Of a DNA stretch of 64,000 nucleotides, positions 403-23,730 are shown one piece after another (within the stretch, counting starts at the first letter, position 1; each line of letters opens with the position of its first letter). Source of the stretch: an uncultured Lentisphaerota bacterium (GTDB lineage: Bacteria; Verrucomicrobiota; Kiritimatiellia; CAIQIC01). Below the pieces are notes generated by a model. That model saw only the letters and a list, made by a program, of their open reading frames with translations, ran no database searches and had not been told where the DNA came from. The stretch is from assembly GCA_903889245.1 (NCBI GenBank), contig CAISWQ010000056.1, forward strand, positions 1 to 64,000. Direction: 5' to 3'. A program made the translations under genes and the position numbers.

Positions 403-927
403 ATGTCACACGAGATTGATCACGGGGAATTCGTCAAGCGGCTTAGCGAAGCGCATCGCCGGCTGCTGGGCTATCTGCTGTCGTTGCTCGGCAACCGGCA
501 TGATGCGGAGGATGTGCTGCAACGGGCGAGCGTCACGATGTGGCGGCGGTTCGAGACGTTCGAGCCGGGCACGGATTTCATGGCGTGGGCGAGCACGGTG
601 GCGTTCTATGAGGCGAAGAATTTCCAGCGCGTGGCGGCCCGGTCGCGGTTGCGCTTCGACGATGACCTGCTGAACACACTGGCGGCGGAGCGGCTGGACG
701 ACCTACGGCATCTCGATGGGCGGCTCGATGCGCTCGAAAAGTGCGTCGGCAAACTCGATACGGCGAACCGCAAGCTGGTCGAGGCGGTCTATGGCGATGA
801 TGCCGACATTGCGGCGCTGGCCGCGCAACTGGGGCGCGCGCCGCAGACGCTCTACAACCGGCTCAACGTCATCCGGCGCATGCTGGCAGATTGCGTCGAG
901 CGACGGTTGGCGGAGGCACACACATGA
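403..927 (+). CDS. ECF RNA polymerase sigma factor, Rhodopirellula/Verrucomicrobium type
   Basis: 174 residues, the normal size for a group IV sigma factor. Region 2 lies at about residues 20-75 (LLGNRHDAEDVLQRAS, then FEPGTDFMAWA, both characteristic of the planctomycete/verrucomicrobial ECF family). The region 4 helix-turn-helix is at about 133-160 (ADIAALAAQLGRAPQTLYNR). Its stop overlaps the FecR-like gene by ATGA, so the two are translationally coupled and are expected to act as a sigma/anti-sigma pair. It heads a same-strand run of secreted polysaccharide-degrading genes, which is the likely regulon (inference). No strong Shine-Dalgarno precedes the ATG. Confidence 0.92.
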   Translation: MSHEIDHGEFVKRLSEAHRRLLGYLLSLLGNRHDAEDVLQRASVTMWRRFETFEPGTDFMAWASTVAFYEAKNFQRVAARSRLRFDDDLLNTLAAERLDDLRHLDGRLDALEKCVGKLDTANRKLVEAVYGDDADIAALAAQLGRAPQTLYNRLNVIRRMLADCVERRLAEAHT

Positions 928-2183
928 ACCTCGACCGCGACGAACTTTTCCGTCTGTTTGGTGCGCTTGGCGATGGCACGATCAGCGCAGCCGATCACGA
1001 GCGGCTTCAGCAAACGTTGCGCGACGACGCGGAAGCGCGCCGGCAGTGGTTTTTGTTCAATGATCTTGAGTCGGGACTCGCCAGTCTGCCGGTAACGCAA
1101 GCGGTGGAGCGACCGGTGGCGGCGGTGTGGCGTTGGTGGTGGGCAGCGGCGGCGGCGGCAGCGGCGGTGATTGTGGCGTTGGCGGTTTTTGTGCCACGCA
1201 AGACACCCGCGCCGGTTGCCATGCTTAGCGCGGCCGCGAACGCGCGGTGGTTTGATCCCAACATGGAATTGACGTTGCGAGGCGGCGAACTGCCGGCCGG
1301 GCTGATCCGACTCGAGGCGGGAGCGGCGGAGTTTCTGTTCGCGGGCGGGGCCACCGCGGTGATCGAAGGGCCTGCCGCATTCGAGCCGGTGGCGGCAGAC
1401 CGGCTGATTCTGACATCCGGCCGCGTCATCGGGCGCTGTGGCCCCGGCGTGGCAAAGCTGATTGTCGTGACGCCGAATGCAACGGTCACGGACTTGGGAA
1501 CGGAGTTCGGTGTGACGGTCGGCGAGGATTTGCAGACGCGCGTGGCGGTGCTCAAGGGCGCGGTGGAGCTGCTGGCAGGTCAGCATCCACGACGTCTGAC
1601 TGCCGGTGAGGCGGCGGCGGTGAATCAACAGGGAAAGCTGGCGGAAGCGGAATTTGTCATCAAGGACTTCTCCAAGCTGGCCACGATTCTGCCGGAGACG
1701 GAGGTGCCCGTTCAGAATGGCGTCAACCTATTGCGCGATCCGAGTCTCAAGCAATTGTCGCGCGAGTGGAGAAGCACCGAGGGGCACGTGGATCTCGACG
1801 CGGCCGGTAGCGCCCGCATTCGCGCCAACGGCAGTCCGCTGTGGCCGTTGCTCTGGCAGCGCGTGGCGACGGGCGACATCGCGGGCCGGGTGGTGATCGC
1901 CTCGGTCCGCGCGCTACAACCCGCTGACGATCCCTTGAGCGGCCTGCAAAATGCGATTGTGAAGATGGTGTTCCTGGATGCCGACGGTCGGGAATTTGCA
2001 GGCGCGGAACGGCATTTTCTGCGGGCCAGCGCGCCGCGCGGGCAATGGATTCGCGGCCAGATCGCCGCGTTGGCGCCACCGGGCACGACGCGCGTGACGT
2101 TTCAGGCGTTGCTGAACGCGCGCGGATTGAAGACCGGATCGGTGTGCTTCACGGAAGCCGCGTTGGTCCTCGCACCCGAATAA
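924..2183 (+). CDS. FecR-domain membrane protein, probable anti-sigma factor
   Basis: 419 residues from the ATG that overlaps the sigma-factor stop (ATGA, 924-927). A longer reading from 891 would run through the sigma gene and is not preferred. The N-terminal 65 residues are cytoplasmic and helical, as in anti-sigma domains. One membrane segment, alanine/valine-rich after WRWWW, lies at about 69-90. A FecR domain follows at about 130-215 (VVTPNATVTDLGTEFGV, then RVAVLKGAVELL). The remaining C-terminal ~170 residues look like a beta-sandwich, perhaps carbohydrate-binding. The expected role is to hold the upstream sigma factor at the membrane and release it on a periplasmic signal, by analogy with FecR; in PVC bacteria this is inferred rather than proven. 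Confidence 0.87.
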   Translation: MNLDRDELFRLFGALGDGTISAADHERLQQTLRDDAEARRQWFLFNDLESGLASLPVTQAVERPVAAVWRWWWAAAAAAAAVIVALAVFVPRKTPAPVAMLSAAANARWFDPNMELTLRGGELPAGLIRLEAGAAEFLFAGGATAVIEGPAAFEPVAADRLILTSGRVIGRCGPGVAKLIVVTPNATVTDLGTEFGVTVGEDLQTRVAVLKGAVELLAGQHPRRLTAGEAAAVNQQGKLAEAEFVIKDFSKLATILPETEVPVQNGVNLLRDPSLKQLSREWRSTEGHVDLDAAGSARIRANGSPLWPLLWQRVATGDIAGRVVIASVRALQPADDPLSGLQNAIVKMVFLDADGREFAGAERHFLRASAPRGQWIRGQIAALAPPGTTRVTFQALLNARGLKTGSVCFTEAALVLAPE

Positions 2184-2190
2184 TTTGATT

Positions 2191-3318
2191 ATGAACAAGA
2201 TCAGCTCATCAATCGCTACCGCGGTTCTATTGCTCGCAACTGCTGCCAATCCCGCTCGCGGTGAGCCGACACTTCAGCGCAGCCTGATGAGCGCGGGCGA
2301 TCCGGCGCGTGTTCAGGCGGTGCTCGCGAAGGCGCGGCGGGGCGAGCCGATTTGCGTGGCGGCCATCGGCGGGTCCATCACGGCGGGCGGGAAGGCAACC
2401 AAGGATCCGATGCGGCGCTATGTGCAGCAGCTTGGGAAATGGTTCGAGCGAACTTTCCCCGGGCAGAAGGTCCGCGTCGTGAACGCCGGCATCGGCGCGA
2501 CGAATTCAGGCTACGGTGCGCTGCGCGTCCAGCGCGATGTCATCGCACAACAGCCCGACCTCGTCGTCGTGGAGTATGCGGTGAACGATGTCACCGGGAT
2601 CGAGAAAATGGATGAAAGCTACGAAGGCGTCCTGCGGCAGTTGCTCGGCAGTTCGACGAATCGCGCGGTGATCGAATTGTTCTTCATGCACAAGGACGGC
2701 AAGAGCGCGCAAGCCGAACAGGTCGCGCTGGGCCGGCATTACGGTCTGCCGATGATCAGTTTTCGCGATGCGGTCTGGCCTGAACTGCAAGCGGGCAAGT
2801 TGAAGTGGGAGACGATCTACGATGACGTGGTTCATCCGAATGATGCCGGGCACGACATCGCGAGCGAACTGCTCCGCGGTTTTCTAAACGCGTCGCTAGC
2901 CAAGTTGCCGGCAAAGGATTCCGACCTGCCGGCGATTGCGCCGGTGCCCGCGCCGTTGATCTCCGATACGTTCGAGCGTTGCACGATGTTCCGCGCCGCC
3001 GATTTGAAGCCGTTGTCATCGGCAGGCTGGACGTGTGTGAAGTCGAACGTCTGGGAATGCGGCAGTGCAGGCGGCCGGATCGAATATGAAGTGCGCGGCA
3101 CGGTGCTGATGCTGGGCCGCAACATTCCCGTCGCCGCGAACAACAAGGTTGAACTCATCGTGGACGGCGGAACGCCGCGCCCGATTGTGCGCGACGGTCA
3201 CAATCGGCCCGTGGCGAAGGGGCTGAACGCCGGCTTGCATCGCGTGGCCGTCGTGGTCCATCCGTTTGACGGAACCGACAAAGTCCAAATCTCGTGGGGA
3301 GGCGCAGCCGGCTTATGA
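2191..3318 (+). CDS. Secreted SGNH/GDSL-family hydrolase (carbohydrate esterase-like)
   Basis: 375 residues. The ATG at 2191, seven bases after the FecR stop, gives a clean signal peptide ending near NPARG; an in-frame TTG at 2185 is less likely. The SGNH blocks are visible: GGSITAGG (block I, catalytic Ser), GATNSGYG, VVVEYAVND (block III Asn), and DDVVHPNDAGH (block V Asp/His). After about residue 250 there is a beta-rich C-terminal domain. Such enzymes remove acyl groups (commonly acetate) from polysaccharides. Position between the FecR gene and glycan-processing genes supports that role; the substrate cannot be read from the sequence. Confidence 0.85.
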   Translation: MNKISSSIATAVLLLATAANPARGEPTLQRSLMSAGDPARVQAVLAKARRGEPICVAAIGGSITAGGKATKDPMRRYVQQLGKWFERTFPGQKVRVVNAGIGATNSGYGALRVQRDVIAQQPDLVVVEYAVNDVTGIEKMDESYEGVLRQLLGSSTNRAVIELFFMHKDGKSAQAEQVALGRHYGLPMISFRDAVWPELQAGKLKWETIYDDVVHPNDAGHDIASELLRGFLNASLAKLPAKDSDLPAIAPVPAPLISDTFERCTMFRAADLKPLSSAGWTCVKSNVWECGSAGGRIEYEVRGTVLMLGRNIPVAANNKVELIVDGGTPRPIVRDGHNRPVAKGLNAGLHRVAVVVHPFDGTDKVQISWGGAAGL

Positions 3319-3371
3319 ACTTTATGAAAATCAGTAGGAAACAAAACGAACATCAACGAGGAGGTTTCAAT

Positions 3372-4796
3372 ATGCCAATCTGCGCGAATTACAAACATCT
3401 CGACCGGCGGTGGTTTCTGAAACGAATGGGGGCCGGCGTCGCGATGGCGGCGGCGCCGTTGATTTTGCCATCACGGATTTGGGCGGCGGGACAAGGCGCC
3501 CCAAGCAACAAGCTCAACATCGCCATGATCGGCTGCGGAGGCCGGGGCACCGCCATCCTCGAAGAAGCAACCCGGCTGGGCGTCAACGTCATTGCCCTCT
3601 GCGATGCGGATGCCAAGCGGATCGGCAACATCCGCAAGGCGATTGGCGATAAGATCCCCGACGCTCGGCCGATGATGGAAAAGGCGACCAGTTACGAGGA
3701 CTACCGCCAGCTCATCGCCAAGGAGAAATCCCTCGACGGTGTCCTGATCGCCATCGGGCCTTGGTGGCACGCCCCCATGAGCACCGCGCTGATCAAGGCG
3801 GGGAAACACGTCTATTGCGAGAAGCCACTCACGCGACTGGTCTCCGAGGCCCGGGCGTTGGGCCAACTGGCCAAGCAGTCGAAGGTCGCCACGCAGATGG
3901 GCACGCAAGGCGCAGCCAGCGAGACGTTCCGCCGCGCCGTGGAGATCATCCAGGCCGGGTTACTGGGCCAGATCCGCGAGCTGCATGTTTGGCACGACAA
4001 CCCGGTGGGGCCGAAGAGTCAGGCCCGGCCGTCCGGTGAAGATCCGGTTCCCGCCGGTTTCAACTGGGACCTGTGGGTTGGCCCGTCGCCCATGCGGCCC
4101 TACAAGAAAGATGTGTATCAGCCCGGCTGCCGAAGGACATCGCAATGGTTCGACTTCGGCGCGGGGATTCTCGGCGATTTCGGCGTGCATACCTGGCAAT
4201 TGCCGATCCGGGCGCTGAAGCTCGGTTACCCGATCCGCGTCGAGCATAGCGTGCCGGAGCCCGTCCTGGAGACGTATGTCTCCACGACGAAGATCCGCTA
4301 TGAGTTTGCCGCGCGGGGCGATCTGGCGCCAGTCACCGCCTGGCATTACGACTCGGGCAACCTGCCGCCGAAAGAGGCCACGGCCGACATTGAAGCGCTC
4401 TACAGAGAGCTACCCAAGGTCGGCGCGATGCTTCTGGGCGAGAAAGGCTCGATGTATGTAGGCGGCTGGGGCGCCGGCAACCTGATCAAGCTCAAGGGGG
4501 ATGAAAAGATGCGCGGCGTGAGCGATCACCCAGCCGCCAAGTCCATCCCGGTGACCGAGCCGCGCGCGCCGCGGCAGAACCACATGCTCGAATGGATCGA
4601 GGCGGCCAAGGGCGGGCCGAAGACCTACCAGTCGTTCGAGGTCGCCGCGCACGCGATGGAAGTCATCCTGCTGGCGATTGTCGCGCAACGGATGCAACGG
4701 CCCATCGCTTGGGACGGCGCAAACATGAAAGTCCCCGGCGCTTCTGAGGCCGACAAGTTCATTCAGGCCGACCACCGCAAGAAGTGGCTGTTTTGA
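3372..4796 (+). CDS. Gfo/Idh/MocA-family oxidoreductase with Tat signal
   Basis: 474 residues from the ATG at 3372, which follows GAGGAGG with 7-nt spacing. The track-length reading from 3294 overlaps the upstream gene and lacks this ribosome site. A twin-arginine signal RRWFLKRMGAG is followed by a hydrophobic stretch to RIWAAG. The Rossmann motif is IAMIGCGGRGTA at about 50. EKP in HVYCEKPLTR is the conserved NAD-sugar active-site loop, and a histidine typical of the second domain sits in GDFGVHTWQLP. Members oxidise or reduce sugars, or act as NAD-dependent glycosidases. Export by Tat with bound cofactor is common for the PVC versions. Gaps to neighbours are 53 and 15 nt, consistent with one operon. 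Confidence 0.9.
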   Translation: MPICANYKHLDRRWFLKRMGAGVAMAAAPLILPSRIWAAGQGAPSNKLNIAMIGCGGRGTAILEEATRLGVNVIALCDADAKRIGNIRKAIGDKIPDARPMMEKATSYEDYRQLIAKEKSLDGVLIAIGPWWHAPMSTALIKAGKHVYCEKPLTRLVSEARALGQLAKQSKVATQMGTQGAASETFRRAVEIIQAGLLGQIRELHVWHDNPVGPKSQARPSGEDPVPAGFNWDLWVGPSPMRPYKKDVYQPGCRRTSQWFDFGAGILGDFGVHTWQLPIRALKLGYPIRVEHSVPEPVLETYVSTTKIRYEFAARGDLAPVTAWHYDSGNLPPKEATADIEALYRELPKVGAMLLGEKGSMYVGGWGAGNLIKLKGDEKMRGVSDHPAAKSIPVTEPRAPRQNHMLEWIEAAKGGPKTYQSFEVAAHAMEVILLAIVAQRMQRPIAWDGANMKVPGASEADKFIQADHRKKWLF

Positions 4797-4811: not shown

Positions 4812-7800
4812 ATGGTGTCCGGAACTAAAGCCATGAAACCAATAACGACAAGTCTAATACTCTCTCTCTTGACGTCCGTGTGTTCGTTGCGCGCGGCAGA
4901 AGAGTCAGTTGTCGCCCCGCGCCAATGGTGGGTCGTCGGCCCGTATACGTGTTACAGCGCGGCGGATTTCGAGGCGAATGAAGCCATCGAAAATGACGCC
5001 AGAAAAAACGAACAGGCGCAGGAATGGAACCGCGTTGTCGGCATGGGCGGACGCGAACTGCGCACCAGCGTTATCGAAGGCGCGCCGACCGGTGTCGTTG
5101 ATTTGGAAAACATCCTCGGTCCGGTGCCGACGAACGTTTGTGCTTACGCCGGTGTTATCGTGCGCGCCGAGAAAGCGGGAACGGCGACAGCGACGTTGAC
5201 GGCGACGGGACCGGTGCGGTGGTTCCTCAACAACAAACTCGTGGCCGAGAGCAGGGAAGCCGGCGTCCAGACAACGAAAATGAGCCTCGCAGCCGGCGTG
5301 AATTGTTTGCTGGCGAAGAGTTGGAAAACCGGCGCCGCTTGGAAACTTGGTTGCACGCTGGAAGGCGTGCCGGTAACGGTCGAGGCGGTGACGGCCAAAG
5401 CGCGGCCAGCGAAACTTGCCACCGGCCGACGCAACGTGGCGTTGTGGTCGGAGGGCAGCAAGGTCGCCGTCAGCAGCATTGTGTGGCGCGGGTTTCCGCT
5501 CAACGAGCACGGCCAGACCCCGCTCAATGATGGGCGGCGCGAGACCGGGTGGACGTCGTTGGAGGTCGATCAGTTGCCGCAGTGGGCGTGGGTGCGGTTT
5601 CCCGGAATGCGCAAGATCGATGAGGTGGTGGTTCATGCCGCATCGGCCGCGCGCCGGCCGCTGGAACTGGTTGGCGAATACACCGACGATGGCGGCGCCA
5701 CGTTCAAGAATCTGTTTCGCGTGACCGATCCAAAAGACCTTTCCATCCGCGCCAACTTCCCGGCAGTGGTGACGGACAACGTGCGCGTCCGCATTGACCG
5801 CGTCGCCGTGCCGGAAAAATCAGGCTTCGCGCAGGCACAGTTGCTGGAGATTGAAGCCTTCGGCGAAGACGCACCCGGCAGCGGTTCGCTCGCGCTGACG
5901 GATGCAACGCCGAAGACTCGCGTGGAGCAGTTGGAACCGGACTCGAACTTCAAGCCGGCAATCGTCACCGACGACGCCACCACGACGGTTTCAACGCCGT
6001 GGTATCAAATCGTCCTCGACCGGCATCGGCCGCGGCTGGCGCAGTTGCGTTTGGACTCGCGCGGCAAAGGCGAGTTCAAGATCAACCTGCTGCGCCGCTC
6101 CGGCGCGACGGCGTTGCTCGCGCCGCTGTTCGATCGCGCCGCCTTCCTGCCGGACGGCGCATTGGAGTTGACCGGCAATGTCGCGAATTATCCGCCGGTG
6201 AGCGTCGCGCCCGGTGTGAGCTTGCAACTGGCGTTGCGGTTCCATGAAAAGAATTTCGAGCTGGCACTTGTCACCGCGTCGGCCCGCAACGTGCCGTTGG
6301 AGGGCGGCGTGTTCCGCTTCGATTTCGATCCCTGGCAAACGCCCGCGACTTTTCTTGGACGCGCGACCGACCGGGCGAATTTCGTGACGGTACCGTGCTA
6401 CATCCACGCGCCCGATGCCGGCACGTTTCACGTCACGCAGAGCAGCGGCGATGGCGCCATCTTGCGGCAGACCGCTACGGCGGATAACTGGGGTCTGTCC
6501 ACCCGCCAGTTTTTGAACGTCGCGCCGCTGGACGGCATGCTGCCGGTGGGCCAGTGGCGCAGCACGTTGCGGTTCGAGGTGGACTCGCCGCGGCCGTTTC
6601 CGGAACTGCTCGCGCACGAGCCGCGCCTCGCCGGGCTGCCGCGCTATGCGTTGAACATCGCGCAGTGGACGCCGTGCCGCCGCGTCTTGATCAACAACGT
6701 CGCCAGCACGCCGTGTCCGTTGTCGCTCCAGTTTTATGCTGAGATGATGACGTATGCGCCGGCGTTGGCGGATGGCGCGACATTGATGGAGTTGATGATT
6801 CCCTCTATTGATGGCTATCTCAACGGCGCGGGCGGACATATTTACTGGCACGGCATGAAAGTCGAAGTGACGCCGCCCGGCACTTGGACGGCATCGTTGG
6901 AGAGTCCCGGTTTTCTGATCAACTCCGCGTGGTATGCCGTGCGCACCGTCGGCGGCCGGCCGTTGCTGGAGCGATGGCTGCCGCGACTGGAGGCAATCGC
7001 CGGCCATCTCGAAGCGCACGACACCGACGGCGACGGCATCGTGGATTCGGTGGACCACGGCCATTGGTTCGACACCTACAACTTGCCGGCCGGCGTGAAG
7101 GAAGCGCACTCGACCGCCGTGAACTACGACGCCTTCCGCCATCTCGCGGAGCTGGAAGAACTCGCTGGCCACGCCGACAAGGCCGCCCATTACCGTGAGC
7201 GCGCGAAGCTGATCAAAGACAACTATCTGAAGATGTTTTTCAACCCCGAAACCGGCGTGATCAGTGGCTGGCGTGACAAAGACGGCAAGCTGCATGACCG
7301 GATGTTCCCGTGGGTCAATGGCTATGCGATTTGTGCCGGTCTGGTGGACGACGAACTCGCCAAGAGCATCCTGACGAAGTTCCTGGCGAAGATGAAGGAG
7401 ATCGGCTTCACACAATATCAATTCGGACTGCCGACGAATTTGCTGCCGATGCAAAAGGACGATTGGAGTCACGGCGGGCGCGGTTGGCAGGACTACATGA
7501 ACGGCAGCATCACGCCGCCCTACTCGCACTATTTCATCATGGCGCTTTACCGGCATGGTTTTCGCGAGGAGGCCGAGCGGATGCTCTGGGCGCAGGTGAG
7601 ATCATTCGATAAGGGCACGTTCAATTCCGGCGTAAGGATTCCGCATCTGCCGCCGCGCAATCCGGTCGGCAGCGCGTTCTTCCGGTGGGATGGCCAGCAC
7701 GCCGAGGGCGAAGGCTACCTGCCCGAAAACTGGCACGCCTACGCGAGCATCTTCGCCGGCCACTACGGCATTCGTTTTGATGAACATGGCTACGCGTTGG

Positions 7801-7880
7801 AAGCATGGTCCCCGCTGAAAGGCCAGCGCGTTCGCTGCGGCCTGCCGGTAATGGGAAAGGTCCAGGAATTCATTGAGTGA
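4812..7880 (+). CDS. Secreted six-hairpin (alpha/alpha)6 glycosidase with discoidin-like domain, family uncertain
   Basis: 1022 residues with a signal peptide; ATG at 4812 is preceded by AGAGGA at 7 nt, and an alternative ATG at 4833 (MKPITTSL) keeps the signal too. The N-terminal third has beta-sandwich character, including an F5/8 type C-like stretch near 220-340 (WVRFPGMRKIDEVVVHA, then RVRIDRV). The C-terminal ~400 residues carry hallmarks of six-hairpin glycosidases: DTDGDGIVDSVDHGHWFDTY, then NYDAFRHLAELEELAGH and GHYGIRFDEHGYALEAW. Similar folds occur in GH78, GH95 and GH116-like enzymes, and the exact family is not claimed. The neighbour is a GH106 rhamnosidase, so deconstruction of a rhamnose-containing glycan is the likely context. 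Confidence 0.7.
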   Translation: MVSGTKAMKPITTSLILSLLTSVCSLRAAEESVVAPRQWWVVGPYTCYSAADFEANEAIENDARKNEQAQEWNRVVGMGGRELRTSVIEGAPTGVVDLENILGPVPTNVCAYAGVIVRAEKAGTATATLTATGPVRWFLNNKLVAESREAGVQTTKMSLAAGVNCLLAKSWKTGAAWKLGCTLEGVPVTVEAVTAKARPAKLATGRRNVALWSEGSKVAVSSIVWRGFPLNEHGQTPLNDGRRETGWTSLEVDQLPQWAWVRFPGMRKIDEVVVHAASAARRPLELVGEYTDDGGATFKNLFRVTDPKDLSIRANFPAVVTDNVRVRIDRVAVPEKSGFAQAQLLEIEAFGEDAPGSGSLALTDATPKTRVEQLEPDSNFKPAIVTDDATTTVSTPWYQIVLDRHRPRLAQLRLDSRGKGEFKINLLRRSGATALLAPLFDRAAFLPDGALELTGNVANYPPVSVAPGVSLQLALRFHEKNFELALVTASARNVPLEGGVFRFDFDPWQTPATFLGRATDRANFVTVPCYIHAPDAGTFHVTQSSGDGAILRQTATADNWGLSTRQFLNVAPLDGMLPVGQWRSTLRFEVDSPRPFPELLAHEPRLAGLPRYALNIAQWTPCRRVLINNVASTPCPLSLQFYAEMMTYAPALADGATLMELMIPSIDGYLNGAGGHIYWHGMKVEVTPPGTWTASLESPGFLINSAWYAVRTVGGRPLLERWLPRLEAIAGHLEAHDTDGDGIVDSVDHGHWFDTYNLPAGVKEAHSTAVNYDAFRHLAELEELAGHADKAAHYRERAKLIKDNYLKMFFNPETGVISGWRDKDGKLHDRMFPWVNGYAICAGLVDDELAKSILTKFLAKMKEIGFTQYQFGLPTNLLPMQKDDWSHGGRGWQDYMNGSITPPYSHYFIMALYRHGFREEAERMLWAQVRSFDKGTFNSGVRIPHLPPRNPVGSAFFRWDGQHAEGEGYLPENWHAYASIFAGHYGIRFDEHGYALEAWSPLKGQRVRCGLPVMGKVQEFIE

Positions 7881-7884
7881 GAAA

Positions 7885-13583: not shown

Positions 13584-16006
13584 GAACCTACCTTATCCTC
13601 ACAGCCCTGCTGCTGGCTCTGCCGGCCGGCGTTTCCGCCGCAAAGCCGGGCGGCAACGCGCCCATACCCGATTTCACCAAGGGCGATAAACCCGGCGAGG
13701 CGCACGACTGGACGCTCGGTCCGACGGGCGCGCGCGGCTGGATTCATACCGCCAGCGGCCACTCGGCGGAGGCGCGCCAGATTTTGGTGACGGCTGTCGC
13801 CAAGGGTTCGCCGGCGGATGGCGTGCTCAACACCGGCGACGTGATTCTCGGAGTGGACGGCAAAAATTTTTCCGGCGATGCGCGTATCCAGTTCGCCAAC
13901 GCCATCATGATGGCGGAACAGGGCGGCGTGTTGCGCTTGCTCCGCTGGCGCAGCGGTCAGGTCCAGAACGTGGAACTGAAACTGCCGGTGCTCGGCAACT
14001 ACAGCGCCACCGCACCCTATGATTGCCCGAAGTCGAAGCGCATCTTCGAGCAAGGCTGCCAGACGCTCGCCAAGCGGATGGTCGCACCGGACTACACGCA
14101 GAACCTGAACGCGATTCCGCGTTCGCTGAATGCGCTGGCGTTGCTGGCCGGCGGCAAGCCGGAGCATCTCCCGCTCGTCCGTCGCGAAGCCCAGTGGGCC
14201 GCGGATTTTTCGATCGATGGTTTCGCGACGTGGTACTACGGCTACGTCATGGCGCTGGCCGCCGAATATGTCATGGCCACCGGTGACCGTTCCGTGATGC
14301 CCGGCCTCAAGCGGCTGGCGCTGGAGGCCGCCCGCGGCCAGAGCGCCGTCGGCACGTGGGGACACAAGTTCGCCATGCCGAACGGGAACCTGAACGGCTA
14401 CGGCTGCATGAACCAGCCCGGCCTCACGCTCTGCATCGGGATGGCGCTGGCCCGCGAGGCCGGCGTGCAGGACCCCGTGCTGGACCGCGCCCTCGCCAAG
14501 GCCGCGGGCTTCCTGCGCTGGTTTGTGAACAAGGGCGCCATCCCCTACGGCGACCACCGGCCGTGGCCCGGCCACGAGGACAACGGCAAATGTTCCAGCG
14601 CGGCGGTGCTCTTCGATCTGCTGGGCGACCGCGAGGCCGCGGAGTTTTTCGCCAAGATGTCCGCCGCCGCCTACAGCGAGCGCGAGCGCGGACATACCGG
14701 CAATTTCTTCAACGTCCTGTGGGCGCTGCCCGGCGTCGCCCGCTGCGGCCCGCTCGCGACGGGCGCCTACTGGAAAGAGCAGTCGTGGTACTACGACCTC
14801 GCGCGGAGCTGGGACGGAACCTTCTTCTATCAAGGCTCGCCGGTCGGCGAGGAGGAACACAACAAATACAAAAACTGGGACTCCACCGGCGCCTACCTGC
14901 TGGCGTTCGCGCTGCCGCTGAAAAGTCTGCGCCTGACCGGCAAAAAACCGTTCTGTGTGCCGGCCCTCAACGCCGCGCAGACGGCGGAGGTCATTGCCGC
15001 AGGCCGCGACTTTGGCTTCAAGGACGACAAGAACGCCTACGACAAACGCACGACCGAGCAACTGCTCGCCGGCCTCTCGTGCTGGTCGCCGGCGGTGCGC
15101 CTGCGCTCGGCGCAGGCGCTGGGCCGGCGCGAGGGGAATTTCACGCCCACGGTGCTCAAGCTGCTGGCCAGCGCCAACCGCGACGCCCGGTACGGTGCTT
15201 GCGAAGCGCTCGCCAGCCTCGGCCCGCGGGCCGACGCGGCCGCGCCGCAGTTGCGCGTCCTGCTCAAGGACCCGGACCCGTGGCTGCAAAGCCAGGCGTG
15301 CATGGCACTGCCGGCCCTGGGCGCGGAGACGCGCAAGGCCAGCGTGAGCGACCTGCTGAAAATGTCGGTGAGCGCCAACCCCGCCGATCCGCGGCGCATG
15401 GCGCAGCGCGCGGCCTGCATGGCGCTGTTCTCGCCCTATCCCGGCGCGCGCGAGCCGAGGAGCATCCTGGCCGAATCGCTCGATGGCGTTGACCGCAAGC
15501 TGCTCTATCCGGCGATCCAGTCGGTTTTGGAAAACGATGACAGCGCCGCCCGCGGCTCGCTCTCGCGCCTCTACGGCAAGTTGACCGACGAGGACGTGGT
15601 GGCGCTGCTGCCCGCCATCGTCAAGGCGATCACGAAGCTCGCGCCGAGCAACGAAATGTTCGGCGACGGCATCCGGCTGGCGGGACTCGATCTCCTCTCG
15701 CGGCTGCATATCCGCGAGGGCCTGCCGCTATGCGTCGCGCTGATCGAGCCGGGCCGCTGGGGCGCGGGCAAGCGCCTGCCGAAATGCCTGGAGTACCTCG
15801 CCCGCTACGGCGCCCACGCCCGGGAAATTCTCCCGCAGTTGCAGGACGTACGCGGCCAGTGGGTGCAAGGCGGACGCGGCAAGGAGAACCGCGAGCAGGT
15901 GCAGTTGCTGGACAAGGCCGTCGCCGCCATCCAAGCCAGCAAGGCAACGCCCACGCTGCTGAACATGAAGGATTTCGCGGCCACCGGAAAGCGGACGCCA
16001 CGGTGA
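13580..16006 (+). CDS. Secreted PDZ- and HEAT-repeat protein (DUF6288-like)
   Basis: 808 residues; the start overlaps the GH28-GH5 stop by ATGA (13580-13583). A signal peptide ends near GVSAAK. A PDZ-like module occupies about 45-140 (AVAKGSPADGVLNTGDVILGV). The middle part (about 160-480) is helical and rich in Trp, Gly and His (NLNGYGCMNQPG, YYDLARSWDGTFFYQGSP), resembling a six-hairpin toroid. The last ~300 residues show HEAT-like helical repeats (LLAGLSCWSPAVRLRSAQAL, YGACEALASLGPRADAAAPQL). The architecture resembles proteins annotated DUF6288 in PVC genomes. No catalytic residues can be named. Placement in the middle of the coupled operon argues for a part in glycan processing or in presentation of the other enzymes. 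Confidence 0.7.
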   Translation: MRTYLILTALLLALPAGVSAAKPGGNAPIPDFTKGDKPGEAHDWTLGPTGARGWIHTASGHSAEARQILVTAVAKGSPADGVLNTGDVILGVDGKNFSGDARIQFANAIMMAEQGGVLRLLRWRSGQVQNVELKLPVLGNYSATAPYDCPKSKRIFEQGCQTLAKRMVAPDYTQNLNAIPRSLNALALLAGGKPEHLPLVRREAQWAADFSIDGFATWYYGYVMALAAEYVMATGDRSVMPGLKRLALEAARGQSAVGTWGHKFAMPNGNLNGYGCMNQPGLTLCIGMALAREAGVQDPVLDRALAKAAGFLRWFVNKGAIPYGDHRPWPGHEDNGKCSSAAVLFDLLGDREAAEFFAKMSAAAYSERERGHTGNFFNVLWALPGVARCGPLATGAYWKEQSWYYDLARSWDGTFFYQGSPVGEEEHNKYKNWDSTGAYLLAFALPLKSLRLTGKKPFCVPALNAAQTAEVIAAGRDFGFKDDKNAYDKRTTEQLLAGLSCWSPAVRLRSAQALGRREGNFTPTVLKLLASANRDARYGACEALASLGPRADAAAPQLRVLLKDPDPWLQSQACMALPALGAETRKASVSDLLKMSVSANPADPRRMAQRAACMALFSPYPGAREPRSILAESLDGVDRKLLYPAIQSVLENDDSAARGSLSRLYGKLTDEDVVALLPAIVKAITKLAPSNEMFGDGIRLAGLDLLSRLHIREGLPLCVALIEPGRWGAGKRLPKCLEYLARYGAHAREILPQLQDVRGQWVQGGRGKENREQVQLLDKAVAAIQASKATPTLLNMKDFAATGKRTPR

Positions 16007-16929
16007 ACGCCGCGCCTCCATCCTCCGCCGCGCAACTTTCCAAGGCTTGGAAAAAACCCGCGTTCGAGCTTCCAATGCTTGGAACGGGCCGGCGCCTGCT
16101 GACCGCCGGCCTGTGCTGTTGCGGCGTCATCGCGGCGCAAGGCCCCGCCGTTGGCGCGAACAAGGCGGCCGCTTCCCAGGCGAAGACCAATGCGGCCCCG
16201 GCCTTGTACACGCAGAGCGGGACCGATCCTTCCTTCCGGTCGCTGCTGGATGCGAAGGCCCTTCCGCTCGGGGGAAATTCCACGGCCGTCGCCAAGGGTT
16301 CCCGCATCCACGTCAACACGGCCGCGCTGGCGCAGGGCGCGAACAGCCGCAACGCCATCCCCAGGAACATCAAAATTCACACCCTGTGCCACAGCGCCGT
16401 GGCCCGCAAGGACTTCCCGAAATGGACGCGGTGGTATCAGGAGGATGGCCACACACAAATCTTCCGGCTCTTCCAGGGCGAGACCAATGTGCGTAATCAG
16501 CGGGAGCTGGCGGCACGCATCGAGGCCTTTGGCGAAACGTGGGAGGCCGGCCGGACGAATGAGTGGCACGAGTGGTCGGGCACCTTCACTATCGTGAGGC
16601 CCCACGGTTGTTCCATCTTCCAATCCAAGAACAATGTGAACGATTGGAGCGTCATGCTCAACATGGGCGACGATGGCAACATCATCCTGAATCACCGTCG
16701 GCACCAGAAGGATGTCGTCCTGGCCCGGGACATGACCGGCAAGAGCTTCGATCTGCTGGTCAGGGACAATGGTCGTGACTATGAAGTATTTTTCAACGAC
16801 CGGAAGGTCGGCGCGGGCTATTATGACCGCCCGCAAGGCAGCAACGGTTTCCGGTGGGGCATGTATCTGGGCCACCATGAGGTCCGGCACGACGCCCTGC
16901 TCTTCGTCACGGGCGCCAAATATAAGTAA
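16003..16929 (+). CDS. Secreted jelly-roll (concanavalin-like) protein, possible polysaccharide lyase
   Basis: 308 residues from a GTG that overlaps the previous stop (GTGA, 16003-16006), the same coupling geometry as the three genes upstream. An ATG at 16075 would give 284 residues and a neater signal peptide (RRLLTAGLCCCGVIAAQ) but lies inside a dispersed palindrome and lacks a ribosome site. The mature part is beta-rich: HVNTAALAQ, TRWYQEDGHTQIFRLFQGE, WHEWSGTFTIVRPHGCSIFQ, then DLLVRDNGRDYEVFFND and FRWGMYLGHHEVRHDALLFV. Alternating strands with a terminal RWG-Y strand fit a ConA-like sandwich such as those of polysaccharide lyases. No family can be assigned with confidence. Confidence 0.6.
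   Translation: MNAAPPSSAAQLSKAWKKPAFELPMLGTGRRLLTAGLCCCGVIAAQGPAVGANKAAASQAKTNAAPALYTQSGTDPSFRSLLDAKALPLGGNSTAVAKGSRIHVNTAALAQGANSRNAIPRNIKIHTLCHSAVARKDFPKWTRWYQEDGHTQIFRLFQGETNVRNQRELAARIEAFGETWEAGRTNEWHEWSGTFTIVRPHGCSIFQSKNNVNDWSVMLNMGDDGNIILNHRRHQKDVVLARDMTGKSFDLLVRDNGRDYEVFFNDRKVGAGYYDRPQGSNGFRWGMYLGHHEVRHDALLFVTGAKYK
16037..16084. repeat. Two copies of the TTCCAA-N3-TTGGAA palindrome
   Basis: TTTCCAAGGCTTGGAAA at 16037-16053 and TTCCAATGCTTGGAA at 16070-16084. They fall in the 5' part of the jelly-roll gene if the GTG start is right, or immediately before and across the ATG at 16075 if that is the true start. Confidence 0.85.
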
Positions 16930-16942
16930 CGGATGACATGCC

Positions 16943-16988
16943 TCCCAACCTTGGAAAATATCTCACGCCAGAGTTCCCAACCTTGGAA
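16943..16988. repeat. Two palindrome copies in the spacer before the acetylesterase gene
   Basis: Variants TCCCAACCTTGGAAA (16943-16957) and TTCCCAACCTTGGAA (16974-16988) in the 86-nt gap. Confidence 0.75.
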
Positions 16989-17015
16989 CCGGGCGGGAAA
17001 GGAAACACCACCGCC

Positions 17016-18938
17016 ATGCAACCCATCCTCACGCTCCTCGCCGCCCTGCTGCTGGCATCGCTGACCGGGTCGGCGGCGGAAAAGAAAAATCTGCCGAAGG
17101 CAGATGTGGTCGAAGTGCCGGCGATTGGGCAGGGCTTGTGCGTCGCCAACGCCTTTCAGTCGAACATGGTTCTCCAGCGCGATAAGCCGCTGAACATCTG
17201 GGGCTGGGCCGCGCCGGGCGAGGAGGTCACCCTCGCGTTCGCCGGGCAACAGGTTCGCGCAAAGGCGGCGGCGGACCGGTCGTGGCAGGTGACGCTCAAG
17301 CCGATGCCCGCCAACCGCCAGCCGCAGAGCCTGACGATCAAGGGCAAGGGTACGACGCTGACGCTGGAGAACATCCTCGTCGGCGATGTCTGGGTGCTGG
17401 GCGGCCAGAGCAACATGGAATTTCCCATCAGCAACGTGGATGACGGCGATCTCGAAATCGTGTCGGCGAACTTCCCGCAGATCCGGCTGCTCACGCTGCC
17501 GCAAGGCAAGGGCTTCCAGTCGGTCCACAGTTTCGAGCGGCTGCACGAGTGGAGTGATTGGTCCCACCGGCACTTTCGCAAGGGCGATTGGGACCTCTGT
17601 TCGCCCGAAACCGTGACGGAGTTCTCTGCGATCGGCTACATCTTTGGCCGGCGAATACACATGGCCAGCGGCGTGCCGATTGGATTGATTGACGCCTCCA
17701 TCGGCGGGACGACCGTGGAGACGTGGACGCCGGAGGAGGTCTTGAAGAAGATCACCGGCAAGGAAACGCAGGACATGCTCAAGGAGTGGGCCGACCGCAT
17801 CGCCGCGTTCGATCCGCAGGAGGATCTGAAGAAACGGATCGCCGGACACGAGAACCACATCAAGAATCTCAAGGCGCGCGGCCAGACGATCTCCGCCGAC
17901 GACAAGCCGCCGACCGACGTGCGTCCCGGTCCCGTCGAGGAGCGCAACCGCCCCGGGTACTGCTACGCCAGCACGATCAAGCCGCTCGACGGCCTGGCCG
18001 TGGCCGGCGCGGTCTGGCATCAGGGCTTCAACAACTGCTTCAACGGCTCCGCGGGCGCGCGGATGTACCGGCAGGTTTTTCCGAAGATGATCGGCGCGTG
18101 GCGCGCGACATTCGGTGATCCGCAGATGCCCTTCTGCATCCTCTCGCTCTGCACGGCGGGCGAGCCGCAGACGCCGGAGAACTTCCTCGAACCCATGTAC
18201 GACGCGGGCGCCTACATTCGCGAGGCGCAATACCAGACCTTCCGCGACCTGCGCGCCGCCGGCGACAAGACCATCGGCTTCGCCAGCAGTTCCGATCTGC
18301 GCAAATCCTGGTATCACCCACAGATCAAGATTCCCGCCGGCGAACGGGCCGCGAAGTGGGCGTTGGTGACGCGGTACGGGCTGCTCAAGGGCCGGGACGC
18401 CGGGGACTATTGGCTCCCGCCCACCATCGAAAAAGTCGAGATCGCCGGCGGTACGATGCGGTTGACGATGAGCGCGGACGTCAAGACCCGCGATGATAGC
18501 GACGGCAAACTGCTCGGCTTCGCCATGGCCGGCAAGGACCGCCGGTTCTATCCCGCCGAGGTCAACTGGTTCACCGACGGCACCAAGGGCAACCGTAACA
18601 AGCCGCAGTACCAGCGCAACGTGCTCGTGCTGGGCAGCCGGTTCGTCCCCGCGCCGGTTCACTACCGGTATGCGTGGGCGCGAAACCCGATGGGCAATAT
18701 CGTCAACAATCGTGGCGTTCCCCTGCCCGGCCAGCGCAGCGACGACTGGCTGCTTGAGGAAACGCCCGTGAAGTTGGACGGGGCGGACGAGAATTCAAAG
18801 CGGCAGGTCGCGAACCAGCTTCGCAAGGAACTCAAGCAGGCCGATCTCGAACGCCGCGTCAAGGAGGCCGAGGCGACCATCGCGGAGTTGAAGCCCGCCC
18901 TCGAAAAGCTCCGGGCCGACGGGAAGAAGCATGACTGA
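17016..18938 (+). CDS. Sialate O-acetylesterase-like secreted esterase (SASA family)
   Basis: 640 residues from the ATG at 17016, which gives a compact signal peptide (ILTLLAALLLASLTGSAA). The in-frame start at 16938 would translate through the palindromic repeats. The SASA serine motif is GDVWVLGGQSNMEF at about 125-140. The second block has GAVWHQGFNN (usual WYQGE, here HQG), with SFFKMIGAW-type context PKMIGAWRATFGDPQMPF. A charged C-terminal segment (about 615-640) looks like a short coiled coil. Homologues remove acetyl groups from sialic acid or from plant and algal polysaccharides; here the second is more likely given the locus. The Gly at the usual catalytic-loop Glu position (WHQGF versus WYQGE) deserves an alignment check. 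Confidence 0.82.
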   Translation: MQPILTLLAALLLASLTGSAAEKKNLPKADVVEVPAIGQGLCVANAFQSNMVLQRDKPLNIWGWAAPGEEVTLAFAGQQVRAKAAADRSWQVTLKPMPANRQPQSLTIKGKGTTLTLENILVGDVWVLGGQSNMEFPISNVDDGDLEIVSANFPQIRLLTLPQGKGFQSVHSFERLHEWSDWSHRHFRKGDWDLCSPETVTEFSAIGYIFGRRIHMASGVPIGLIDASIGGTTVETWTPEEVLKKITGKETQDMLKEWADRIAAFDPQEDLKKRIAGHENHIKNLKARGQTISADDKPPTDVRPGPVEERNRPGYCYASTIKPLDGLAVAGAVWHQGFNNCFNGSAGARMYRQVFPKMIGAWRATFGDPQMPFCILSLCTAGEPQTPENFLEPMYDAGAYIREAQYQTFRDLRAAGDKTIGFASSSDLRKSWYHPQIKIPAGERAAKWALVTRYGLLKGRDAGDYWLPPTIEKVEIAGGTMRLTMSADVKTRDDSDGKLLGFAMAGKDRRFYPAEVNWFTDGTKGNRNKPQYQRNVLVLGSRFVPAPVHYRYAWARNPMGNIVNNRGVPLPGQRSDDWLLEETPVKLDGADENSKRQVANQLRKELKQADLERRVKEAEATIAELKPALEKLRADGKKHD

Positions 18939-20354: not shown

Positions 20355-20375
20355 GGCCCCAACGAAAGCAACACC

Positions 20376-21989
20376 ATGAAACGAAGCCTCACACTCCTCG
20401 CCGCCCTGCTGCTCGCGGCGCAGGCCGACGGCAAGCTGCAGGATGGCGAGATGGCCGGCTACCTCTTTGGCCCGGCGGAGAAGGTGCCGGAGGACTTCAA
20501 CGGCGGCTTCTCCCTCTACGCGGCGGCGTGGCCGCTCGTCGCCACCTATCCCGGCCACCGCTTCCAGACCGGCCTGTGCGGCACCTGGATGCACCCGCAG
20601 TGGGACGCGGACAAAAAGCCCGCCGACAAATGCTACACCGACATCGAGGGCGGCCTCGGCTGGTGGCGCGACACGCACTTCCCCACCACCACGCCGAAAT
20701 TCATCATGGGCGGCGTCGGGCCGAATTTCCGGTGGATCGCCAACGGCCCCGGCTACGGCGCGGGCACGTGGGAGAAACCGCGCGGCCAGTACGGCGTCGC
20801 GCAGTTGAGCCCGTGGCTGCTGTTCCCGCTCGATGGCCTGAACCTGAAGCAGGGCGTGCGCGGCGAACTCTTCGGTTACGGCTATCTCCCGCTGCCGCTC
20901 ACGAATCCCAAAACCACCACGGCCGGCAAAAACGTGCCGACCGGCAACCACTGCTGGACGCTGTTCTTGAGCACCGCCAACTTCAAGGGCCCGGTCGCCT
21001 TCTTCACGCCCTTCTTCTGGTCGCAGGCGACGCTCGAGCATCCAGAGTGGGCCGGGCTGATGCTGGACTCGCGCCCCGCCGGCCCGAACAAGGCGATCCA
21101 GATGGAGACGCAGCACGTCCCGGCCATCTTGAGCACGAGCACGACCGGCCAGGTTTTCGCCCGCGTCGCGCCGACCGCGTTCCCCATCGGCCCCGATGGA
21201 AACTCGACCGTGCTCCACCGGATCACCGCCTACAAGAAGGCGGCGCTATGGGACGACGTGCAGCGCTGGTTCGCCGGCGGCGCGCCGGCCTCGGGCCAGA
21301 TCAAGGCCGACGCCTCCGCCGTGCACAACTTCCGTCAGGGCGGCGGCTCCAGTTGGAGCATCTATCCGCCCCGCACGGCGCGCGAAGCGAAGCCGCCGCT
21401 CGCGTGGAACTCCTTCGCCACGTCCTTCACGCCGAACCCCGTCACGTTCGGCTACCGCTGGAGCGAGCAGCTCACCCGCCGGAGCGGCGCGCTCGTCACG
21501 CTGCCCGAATACTACCGGCTCGACACGAGCGGCAAGAAACCCCGGTGGATCGTCGTCGCGACGCAGGACGTCCCGCCGGAACTCGGCCTCACGCAACACC
21601 GCTTTGAGACGCCGAAGGAAAAGCCGCAGGAGCCCCGCATCACGCCGGACGACGCCGCAAGCTGCTGGAAGCAACCCGGCCCCAAAGCCGGCCCGTTCCA
21701 GGCGCAGCTCGGCGATGGCAGCGTGGTCACCTACTACTGGTATCGTTTCGCCGATCAACCCGCGCTGCTCAACGCCGACCTCACGCCGGCGGAGCGCGAG
21801 CAGATGCAGGCGCGTGTGGAAAAAATCCATCGTGCCTGGACGAAAGACCGCACCTACCTCGCCCCGCCGGACGCCGGCGCGCTCGCGAGCCTGGACCCGG
21901 CCCTGATCCTGACGCCGCCGCGCGGCCTCGAAGCCGGCTACGTCCCCATCGCCACCCGTCAGGAATTGCCCGGTGCGCGTAACCCATGA
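20376..21989 (+). CDS. Secreted protein of unknown function, tandem paralogue 1
   Basis: 537 residues with a signal peptide nearly identical in wording to that of the sulfatase before it (SLTLLAALLLAAQA). No recognised domain. Features shared with the next gene: NFKGPVAFFTPFFWSQ, a DGSVVTYYWYRFADQPALL block near 445, and the ending PPRGLEAGYVPIATRQELPGA. It is rich in Trp, Gly and Pro, and a beta-rich extracellular fold is likely. Its place at the end of the glycan operon suggests binding to or acting on the polysaccharide. Function not assigned. Confidence 0.75.
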   Translation: MKRSLTLLAALLLAAQADGKLQDGEMAGYLFGPAEKVPEDFNGGFSLYAAAWPLVATYPGHRFQTGLCGTWMHPQWDADKKPADKCYTDIEGGLGWWRDTHFPTTTPKFIMGGVGPNFRWIANGPGYGAGTWEKPRGQYGVAQLSPWLLFPLDGLNLKQGVRGELFGYGYLPLPLTNPKTTTAGKNVPTGNHCWTLFLSTANFKGPVAFFTPFFWSQATLEHPEWAGLMLDSRPAGPNKAIQMETQHVPAILSTSTTGQVFARVAPTAFPIGPDGNSTVLHRITAYKKAALWDDVQRWFAGGAPASGQIKADASAVHNFRQGGGSSWSIYPPRTAREAKPPLAWNSFATSFTPNPVTFGYRWSEQLTRRSGALVTLPEYYRLDTSGKKPRWIVVATQDVPPELGLTQHRFETPKEKPQEPRITPDDAASCWKQPGPKAGPFQAQLGDGSVVTYYWYRFADQPALLNADLTPAEREQMQARVEKIHRAWTKDRTYLAPPDAGALASLDPALILTPPRGLEAGYVPIATRQELPGARNP

Positions 21990-22006
21990 AACCCCACGCG
22001 ACGATG

Positions 22007-22083
22007 TTCCAAGCCCTGGAAAATTGCCTGGAATTTTTTCCAAGGCTTGGAAAAAGCGGCGCGAAAATTTCCAAGGCTTGGAA
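22007..22083. repeat. Three palindrome copies between the tandem paralogues
   Basis: TTCCAAGCCCTGGAA (22007-22021), TTCCAAGGCTTGGAA (22038-22052, flanked by T and A runs) and TTCCAAGGCTTGGAA (22069-22083) fill the 112-nt gap just upstream of the ribosome site of the second paralogue. Confidence 0.88.
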
Positions 22084-22101
22084 CTGATGAAGGGAGCAAC
22101 C

Positions 22102-23730
22102 ATGAAACGCTGCTATCTGTTCGCTGCCACAGCCCTCGGACTTGCGACCGCCACGGCGGCGGACAAGGCCGGCGTCGTCACGTCGCACTCGCAAGGGCTG
22201 CACGGCTACATCGGCTTCAAGCACGATGAGCCGCCGCCCCAGTCGGCCTTCCACGCGGGCATGGGCTTCTATGCCGCGGTCTGGCCGCTGGTGGATCAGC
22301 CACTGGCCGATTTCCAGATCGGTCTGCCGAGCTCGTGGATCATGCCGGACAACTCCGACAACAAGGACAAGCCGCTCGCGCCCGAGGGTACGCTGGCCCG
22401 GACGTGGAAGCCGCGCGGGCCGACGTGGGCCAGCGTCTTCCAGACCGTGGAGGGCGGGCTGGGTTACTGGGCGGGCAATCATTTCCGCTACGGTCCTCCG
22501 AAGTTCAGCATGAACGCCACGCCGCAATGCTACGACTACGAAATCGGCTCGCCCGGCTGGTCGTTCTTCTACAGCGACACCGCGCTGCCGGACAACCGCC
22601 TCGGCATCGCGCAGCTCTCCAACCGCCTGCTGATTCCGCCCGACGCGCTGCCGTTCCAGGGCAACCCCAACGGCGAATTCCTCGGCTACACGTGGATGGC
22701 GTTGCCGTTCACCGATCCGGTCGCCGGCGACCCGCCGACGGGCGACCAGAGCTGGACGTGCTTCCTCTCCGCCGCCAACTTCAAGGGCCCGATCGCCTAC
22801 TACATCCCGGAGACGTGGAGCAAGATCGGCAAGCTGTTCAACTATCCGTTCCTCTACGGCCGCGGCCTCGACGCGCGCCCGGGCAAGATGGGCGGCGGCG
22901 CGATGGAGATCAACACCGTGCCGCGCTTCGATGCGCAGGACGCGCGGGGCGTCACCTACTCCAAGCTGCCGAAGCTCCAGTGGCCCGTGGACGCACAAGG
23001 CCGCGCCTACCTCGTGCAGGACGTCACCTACTACTCGCAGGCCGCGCTCGCCGACGCGTTCAAGGCCTGGCGCGATGGCGGCCCCGCCTGCTCCGGCCGC
23101 TTCGATGACAAGGGCGCGTGGCGGCCCAAGCTCAACACCCGCACCACGCGCTACGACCAGGAGGGCAAGAAGATGGTCGGCGTGGAGCACGCCTTCGACA
23201 CGCGGATTTTCGAGGGCAACGTCTGGGGCTTGCAGTGGTTCACCAACAGCCTCGCCACAAACGGACTGTTCCCGCAGTACTACAAACACGTCGGCGCGGA
23301 ACGCGTCGCGATCAGCGCTGCCGAGGTGCCCGCCGAAACCAAGCTGCACGCGCAGGAGTTCAAGCGCGCCACGCCCGGCAAGCCCTACACCTCGCCGACC
23401 GGCGGCGCGTGGACGCAGCCCGGCGCGAAGCAGGGGCCCTGCACTGCGCGGCTCGTGGATGGCTCCGTGGTGACCTACTCGTGGTACCGCTTCGTGGATC
23501 AGCCCTCCTTCCAGCAATACCAGTGGAGCGCGGAGAAGAAAGCGAAGCTGCAGGAGTTCGTCGAGAAGCTGCACGCGCAGTGGAGCCTTGACCGCGACTA
23601 CATGGCCCCGCCCACGCGCGGCCAGCTCGTCGCGCTCGACCCCGCGTTGCTGGTGACGCCGCCCAAAGGTTTGGAGGTCGGCTACGTCCCGATCGTCACC
23701 GGCCAGGCCTGGGCCGGCGCGAAGCGCTAA
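22102..23730 (+). CDS. Secreted protein of unknown function, tandem paralogue 2
   Basis: 542 residues from the ATG at 22102, preceded by AGGGAG at 6 nt; a longer reading from 21973 would translate the repeats and is rejected. Signal peptide to about TATAADK. It aligns over its whole length with the preceding gene: NFKGPIAYYIPETWSK, then DGSVVTYSWYRFVDQPSF and PPKGLEVGYVPIVTGQAWAGA. The two are therefore an old tandem duplication that has diverged strongly. No catalytic motif is recognised. Confidence 0.75.
   Translation: MKRCYLFAATALGLATATAADKAGVVTSHSQGLHGYIGFKHDEPPPQSAFHAGMGFYAAVWPLVDQPLADFQIGLPSSWIMPDNSDNKDKPLAPEGTLARTWKPRGPTWASVFQTVEGGLGYWAGNHFRYGPPKFSMNATPQCYDYEIGSPGWSFFYSDTALPDNRLGIAQLSNRLLIPPDALPFQGNPNGEFLGYTWMALPFTDPVAGDPPTGDQSWTCFLSAANFKGPIAYYIPETWSKIGKLFNYPFLYGRGLDARPGKMGGGAMEINTVPRFDAQDARGVTYSKLPKLQWPVDAQGRAYLVQDVTYYSQAALADAFKAWRDGGPACSGRFDDKGAWRPKLNTRTTRYDQEGKKMVGVEHAFDTRIFEGNVWGLQWFTNSLATNGLFPQYYKHVGAERVAISAAEVPAETKLHAQEFKRATPGKPYTSPTGGAWTQPGAKQGPCTARLVDGSVVTYSWYRFVDQPSFQQYQWSAEKKAKLQEFVEKLHAQWSLDRDYMAPPTRGQLVALDPALLVTPPKGLEVGYVPIVTGQAWAGAKR

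What the first reader, a model, noticed from the sequence alone, without database searches (positions are those of the whole stretch)
403..23730. A 23-kb sigma/anti-sigma-headed glycan-degradation operon without SusC/SusD or a visible transporter
Thirteen same-strand genes run from an ECF sigma and FecR-like pair through esterase, oxidoreductase, three glycosidases, PDZ/HEAT protein, lyase-like protein, acetylesterase, sulfatase and two unknown secreted proteins. Four junctions are stop/start overlaps (924, 11214, 13580, 16003) and most others are under 60 nt. No outer-membrane porter, binding protein or sugar transporter is present, unlike Bacteroidota loci. A FecR-like sensor could detect the glycan directly through its C-terminal sandwich. 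The target is inferred to be acetylated, sulfated and rich in rhamnose and uronic acid.
Basis: partly seen in the sequence, partly recalled or inferred. Interest (0 to 1): 0.7.

Follow-up and report, generated by a model that had tools for sequence, protein, structure and literature searches.

The report
Sigma-controlled glycan operon with swapped sensor
A tightly packed set of 13 bacterial genes pairs a membrane-anchored on-switch with eleven exported proteins, mostly enzymes for breaking down a rhamnose-containing sugar polymer, and relatives show that the outer sensing half of the switch has been swapped, like a plug-in part, between unrelated inner halves.

Summary
Thirteen same-strand genes (403-23730) are packed with five 4-nt start/stop overlaps and no gap above 112 nt. 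They begin with a TIGR02989 ECF sigma factor and a FecR-like anti-sigma, followed by eleven exported proteins (GDSL, Gfo/Idh, GH78-like, GH106, GH28-GH5, DUF6288, SASA, sulfatase, three unassigned). There is no transporter in the run, no SusD in the genome, and four TonB plug proteins, all on other contigs. SusCD-free clusters are already known for Verrucomicrobiota, so that part is not new.

The new result is modularity of the switch. The window's sigma and cytoplasmic anti-sigma domain are 57%/56% identical to G491's. Its membrane and periplasmic parts are instead 71/72/66% identical to G109's, whose sigma and anti-sigma domain (25-31%/24% to the window) match a third operon (78%/73%). A third locus, G502, carries the same sensor with yet another sigma. 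All three loci with this sensor have a GDSL-family hydrolase among the first two downstream genes. Across 64 pairs, sigma tracks the anti-sigma domain (r=0.69) better than the periplasmic FecR part (0.47).

Best reading: an envelope glycan sensor releases an ECF sigma factor that turns on the enzymes. Direct glycan binding and the sensor's fold are not shown. New variant of a known kind.

The parts
403..927 (+). ECF sigma factor, TIGR02989 (Rhodopirellula/Verrucomicrobium family)
   Evidence: 167.1 bits vs cut-off 124.55; the only match above cut-off in the genome; 57% identical to the sigma of G491:C190
924..2183 (+). FecR-like anti-sigma: cytoplasmic anti-sigma domain (aa ~5-53), TM (72-88), FecR beta domain (~125-240), C-terminal domain (265-419) of unresolved fold
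   Evidence: PF04773 26.3 bits; AF2 confident for aa 1-47 and 125-240 only; Foldseek PupR CSS domain 6ovk E 3.7e-7, BDI_1681 4m0n E 6.6e-9, weak MucA/RsiW for the N-terminus; only FecR in the genome
2191..3318 (+). GDSL-family esterase, exported
   Evidence: PF13472 E 1.3e-18; 85% identical orthologue next to the same sensor in G109
3315..4796 (+). Gfo/Idh/MocA oxidoreductase with Tat-type signal; resembles BT_2158 glycoside 3-dehydrogenase (271 bits, below its cut-off of 750)
   Evidence: ATGA overlap at 3315
4812..7880 (+). GH78/MGH1-like (alpha/alpha)6 glycosidase
   Evidence: PF22422 31.9 bits, PF17389 26.4 bits
7885..11217 (+). GH106 alpha-L-rhamnosidase
   Evidence: PF17132 676 bits; one of 18 GH106-matching genes in the genome
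11214..13583 (+). GH28 + GH5 fusion
   Evidence: PF00295 68 bits aa 51-324, PF00150 41.6 bits aa 497-703; NCBIfam polygalacturonase/rhamnogalacturonidase-like below cut-off
13580..16006 (+). DUF6288 + PDZ + HEAT exported protein
   Evidence: PF19805 487 bits; sits next to GH106 or sulfatases without sigma/FecR in other genomes
16003..16929 (+). exported protein of no known family
   Evidence: no Pfam, NCBIfam or PDB match
16938..18938 (+). SASA acetylesterase
   Evidence: PF03629 48 bits
18987..20354 (+). sulfatase with CTPTR formylglycine motif
   Evidence: PF00884 164 bits; motif read from the sequence
20376..21989 (+). exported protein, unnamed family, paralogue of the next gene
   Evidence: no Pfam/NCBIfam; aligned with g13
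22102..23730 (+). exported protein, unnamed family, likely start 22102
   Evidence: in 17 of 288 genomes of the class, 67-87% identity in eleven of them; no Pfam, NCBIfam or PDB match

Best explanation
This is an ECF-sigma/anti-sigma-controlled glycan-degradation operon. Without substrate, the FecR-like inner-membrane protein holds the sigma factor through its N-terminal helical domain. A product of the target glycan, probably rhamnose- and galacturonate-containing and acetylated or sulfated, is detected in the periplasm by the FecR beta domain and the C-terminal domain. Detection, probably followed by regulated proteolysis, frees the sigma factor, which transcribes its own operon and so more exported enzymes. 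The switch has two exchangeable modules: sigma plus anti-sigma domain (output), and TM plus periplasmic sensor (input), the latter tied to the first enzyme. Shown by sequence: gene order, coupling, domain make-up, module exchange. Inferred: ligand, release step, autoregulation, promoter, substrate.
For: Start/stop overlaps across the run. Sigma family above cut-off. Anti-sigma anatomy by AF2 and Foldseek. Congener operons sigma-FecR-DUF4861-...-GH106-SASA-Gfo/Idh. Module exchange: window vs G109 ASD 24%, TM 71%, FecR 72%, C-term 66%, sigma 25-31%; G109 vs G004 sigma 78%, ASD 73%, FecR 32%; window vs G491 sigma 57%, ASD 56%, FecR 39%, C-term 29%; G502 same C-term (38%) with a further unrelated sigma. 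Mantel across 64 pairs: sigma-ASD 0.685, sigma-FecR 0.469; partials 0.62 and 0.32. A GDSL-family hydrolase is among the first two downstream genes in all three loci with this sensor. No SusD in the genome; 4 TonB plugs, none on this contig.
Against: No transcript or promoter data, and the contig starts 402 bp upstream of the sigma gene. The C-terminal domain has no resolved fold or known relative. In 32 of 58 TIGR02989 loci no gene follows the anti-sigma in the same run by a crude gene caller, so the pair is not a glycan regulator by nature. The operon as a whole is not conserved: its genes sit in other contexts elsewhere. Seventeen further GH106 genes in the genome are not next to a FecR.
Confidence: 0.6

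Rival explanations
1. The anti-sigma does not see the glycan itself. It is told by another protein, such as one of the four TonB-dependent receptors encoded elsewhere, as in FecA-FecR and in Bacteroides PULs.
For: The FecR beta domain is the part that matches the PupR cell-surface-signalling domain. The genome has four TonB plug proteins. In Bacteroides, ECF-sigma/anti-sigma PUL regulation is described as trans-envelope signalling with SusC (PMC3243724).
Against: No receptor gene in this run or in the related operons examined; the four plugs lie on contigs C33, C34 and C42, not C56. The C-terminal domain changes between operons while the FecR domain is kept, which fits ligand-specific sensing.
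Confidence: 0.2
2. The sigma/anti-sigma pair and the enzymes are neighbours by accident of mobile, mosaic gene content. The pair controls itself or an envelope-stress regulon, and the enzymes are read from other promoters.
For: Many TIGR02989 pairs stand alone. The operon genes occur in other arrangements without the pair.
Against: 4-nt coupling of sigma to anti-sigma, 7 nt to the first enzyme, and further coupling down the run. Recurrent GH106/SASA/sulfatase/GDSL neighbours in distant genomes. The sensor and GDSL enzyme move together.
Confidence: 0.15
3. The module swap is an assembly artefact in the G109 contig (a genome in about 380 contigs).
For: G109 is fragmented, with 6% estimated contamination and an 8.4-kb contig.
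Against: The join is in frame and just before the TM helix. G502, on a 368-kb contig, independently joins the same sensor type to another sigma, and G491:C190 independently joins the window's sigma/ASD type to a different sensor. A second exchange lies within G296. The Mantel trend does not rest on one locus.
Confidence: 0.05

Closest known systems
SusCD-free CAZyme/sulfatase gene clusters of Verrucomicrobiota (PMC8857213, PMC11980603)
   Same: Rhamnosidases and sulfatases clustered with other exported enzymes; no SusC/SusD; secreted products
   Different: Those papers, searched for sigma factors, do not report ECF/FecR control; here the cluster is headed by a sigma/anti-sigma pair
ECF-sigma/anti-sigma-controlled PULs of Bacteroides (PMC3243724)
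   Same: ECF sigma plus FecR-type anti-sigma next to a glycan-degradation locus
   Different: No SusC/SusD; different sigma subfamily (TIGR02989); C-terminal periplasmic domain replaces the receptor partner (inferred)
sigmaI/RsgI biomass-sensing pairs of Clostridium thermocellum (PMC6056542, PMC4711584)
   Same: Works alike if the sensor reading is right: single-pass anti-sigma whose outer domain senses polysaccharide and controls secreted enzymes, with no transporter in the signalling
   Different: sigmaI is not an ECF factor; RsgI sensors are known carbohydrate-binding modules; Gram-positive
FecI/FecR and PupI/PupR cell-surface signalling
   Same: ECF sigma; ASD-TM-FecR beta domain (Foldseek to PupR 6ovk)
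   Different: No TonB receptor in the operon; extra C-terminal domain; enzyme cargo instead of iron uptake

Membership tests
TIGR02989 ECF sigma (Sig-70_gvs1) | score above the curated cut-off of 124.55 bits | tested here: met
   167.1 bits
FecR-like anti-sigma | FecR domain above the curated cut-off, with anti-sigma helices and one TM segment | tested here: met
   26.3 vs 24 bits; AF2 helices 5-53, TM-like helix 72-88; Foldseek
FecI/FecR cell-surface signalling | cognate TonB-dependent receptor gene in the locus | tested here: not met
   none in the run; the four Plug matches are on other contigs
Bacteroidota PUL | SusC/SusD pair | tested here: not met
   no SusD_RagB in the genome; TonB plug frames 692-858 aa, on other contigs
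SusCD-free CAZyme gene cluster | several CAZymes/esterases/sulfatases co-localised without SusCD | tested here: met
operon | same strand, tight spacing, no internal terminator | tested here: met
   co-transcription itself not testable here
RsgI-type glycan-sensing anti-sigma | extracytoplasmic carbohydrate-binding domain | tested here: inconclusive
   C-terminal domain has no Pfam/PDB match and low pLDDT; LamG in relatives
GH28 polygalacturonase | NTD, DD, GHG and RIK catalytic motifs | tested here: inconclusive
   by eye NCD and GDD present, GHG and RIK not seen

The most novel reading that the evidence does not exclude
FecR-like anti-sigma proteins of these bacteria are direct glycan receptors built from two plug-in halves. 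Evolution rewires glycan sensing by swapping the membrane-plus-periplasm half, together with the first enzyme, between unrelated sigma/anti-sigma-domain halves, so that no outer-membrane receptor is needed.
Probability: 0.4. Interest if true: 0.65.

Novelty: new variant of a known kind. Interest (0 to 1): 0.48.

Why it matters
These bacteria break down sulfated and rhamnose-rich polymers without the SusCD system, and how they sense the polymer is unclear. Here nature has done the domain-swap experiment: the same sensor on different sigma outputs and the same output on different sensors. That makes 'which part reads the sugar' directly testable with chimeras, and gives a rule for matching sensors to enzymes in genomes. 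It could also supply ready-made sensor parts for reporters.

Tried and rejected
AF2 of the g12/g13 family with the two window sequences failed (pLDDT 28). The FecR C-terminal domain did not fold and found no Pfam or PDB relative, nor any other carrier among 6,327 ORFs of the loci then held. One genome-contig scan with the FecR alignment gave a single locus, from a planctomycete. Whole-operon conservation: rejected, since a DNA search across 346 genomes finds the genes singly or in small groups in other contexts. Idea that all TIGR02989 pairs head glycan operons: rejected. Enrichment of sulfatases downstream of the pairs (9 of 64, versus none among control families seen in two or more members) rests largely on one locus, L090, so it is not used as proof. 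A first GDSL test used a misframed query for G502; it was redone with a profile: 3/3 loci with this sensor against 3/64 others. That is post hoc, and the profile was built partly from those loci.

Full report
What is there. The window is the first 64 kb of a 223-kb contig in a 5.26-Mb genome. From 403 to 23730 there are 13 genes on the plus strand. With the most likely starts the spacings are -4, 7, -4, 15, 4, -4, -4, -4, 8, 48, 21 and 112 nt. No terminator-like or promoter-like site in the run exceeds what shuffled sequence gives. The sigma factor belongs to TIGR02989 and is the only member above cut-off in the genome. The second gene is the genome's only FecR match. The other eleven proteins appear exported (signal peptides read by eye; Tat-type for the oxidoreductase). 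They are GDSL esterase, Gfo/Idh, a weak GH78/MGH1-like enzyme, GH106, GH28-GH5, DUF6288/PDZ/HEAT, an unassigned protein, SASA esterase, sulfatase and two paralogous unassigned proteins.

Transport. Nothing in the run is a transporter. The genome has no SusD and four TonB plug proteins of 692-858 aa frames on other contigs. Absence of SusCD from such clusters is published for Verrucomicrobiota (PMC8857213; PMC11980603). It is a feature of the group, not a surprise.

Anatomy of the switch. The anti-sigma has an N-terminal three-helix domain (aa 5-53), a hydrophobic helix (72-88) and a beta domain (125-240), the first and last predicted with fair confidence, then 180 residues that did not fold. 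Foldseek matches the folded part to the PupR cell-surface-signalling domain and to BDI_1681, and the N-terminus weakly to MucA and RsiW. In congeners the C-terminus is a LamG domain. Here it is something else, with no Pfam or PDB relative.

Relatives. In two congeners a sigma/FecR pair heads an operon with DUF4861, an FG-GAP-like protein, GH106, SASA and Gfo/Idh. In G109, from another family of the class, an anti-sigma has a periplasmic part 66-72% identical to the window's and an 85% identical GDSL esterase after it, with a 1421-aa repeat protein between. Yet its sigma factor (31% by pairwise alignment, 25% in the joint alignment) and anti-sigma domain (24%) are unrelated to the window's. They are 78% and 70-73% identical to those of the G004 operon. 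The break falls at aa 60-68, just before the membrane helix.

The reverse case exists. In G491, sigma and anti-sigma domain are 57% and 56% identical to the window's, but the FecR part is 39% and the C-terminus is unrelated. G502 has the window-type C-terminus (38-41%) with yet another sigma (28%); a GH16-GDSL protein is its first downstream gene and a sulfatase lies further on. Within G296 two pairs share the FecR part while sigma, anti-sigma domain and far C-terminus differ. Over 64 pairs, sigma similarity correlates with the anti-sigma domain (0.685) more than with the FecR part (0.469); partial values are 0.62 and 0.32. Window against G109 is the extreme case: periplasmic similarity ranks 9th, sigma similarity 1330th, of 2016 comparisons.

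Meaning. Sigma and anti-sigma domain form one unit; membrane helix and periplasmic part form another that travels with a GDSL enzyme. If the periplasmic part reads the inducer, this is what evolution should leave. It does not prove glycan binding. The closest analogy in mode of action is sigmaI/RsgI of Clostridium thermocellum (PMC6056542), where the outer domain of the anti-sigma senses polysaccharide. The closest relative in parts is the FecI/FecR and Bacteroides ECF PUL class (PMC3243724), from which this differs by lacking a receptor in the locus.

Limits. In 32 of 58 TIGR02989 loci the pair is not followed by a same-strand gene in the run, and the gene caller was crude. The operon is a mosaic: its genes occur elsewhere without the pair, for example DUF6288 beside GH106 in G166. 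Eighteen GH106-matching genes exist in the genome but only one FecR, so most are controlled otherwise. The substrate is a guess from enzyme families.

Noticed in passing
window 20376-21989 and 22102-23730: An unnamed exported protein family (~540 aa; motifs EGGLGxW, DGSxVTYxWYRFxDQP, GYVPIxTxQ) with no Pfam, NCBIfam or PDB match. Found in 17 of 288 genomes of the class, at 67-87% identity in eleven of them, in changing neighbourhoods that often include sulfatases or Gfo/Idh.
   Followed up: partly
own genome: 18 distinct GH106-matching frames in a 5.26-Mb genome, an unusual load of rhamnosidases; only one lies next to a FecR.
   Followed up: partly
L084:1938-6203 (G109), L280:10070-15571 (G502), L285:6177-16088 (G563): Giant repeat proteins follow the FecR gene directly or as the next gene but one: PATR repeats in the last two by Pfam, similar-looking beta-repeats in the first by eye. 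In G563 an alpha-L-fucosidase domain is fused in.
   Followed up: no
L200 and L203 (G296): Two sigma/anti-sigma pairs in one genome share a near-identical FecR part (up to 92% per block) but differ in sigma, anti-sigma domain and far C-terminus: a second module exchange.
   Followed up: partly
window 11214-13583: GH28 and GH5 fused in one exported protein; by eye the GH28 part keeps NCD and GDD but not the usual GHG and RIK motifs.
   Followed up: no
L264 (G166), L260 (G079), L257 (G004): DUF6288 relatives of window gene 13580-16006 sit beside GH106 or sulfatases without any sigma/FecR, so this family of unknown function looks tied to rhamnose-polymer degradation.
   Followed up: partly
window 24180-25862: GmrSD-type restriction enzyme gene immediately after the operon (449-nt gap).
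   Followed up: no
window 26481-34226: More polymer-type genes follow: FAD oxidoreductase with a Tat-like N-terminus, BNR-repeat protein and, on the minus strand, a second sulfatase.
   Followed up: no
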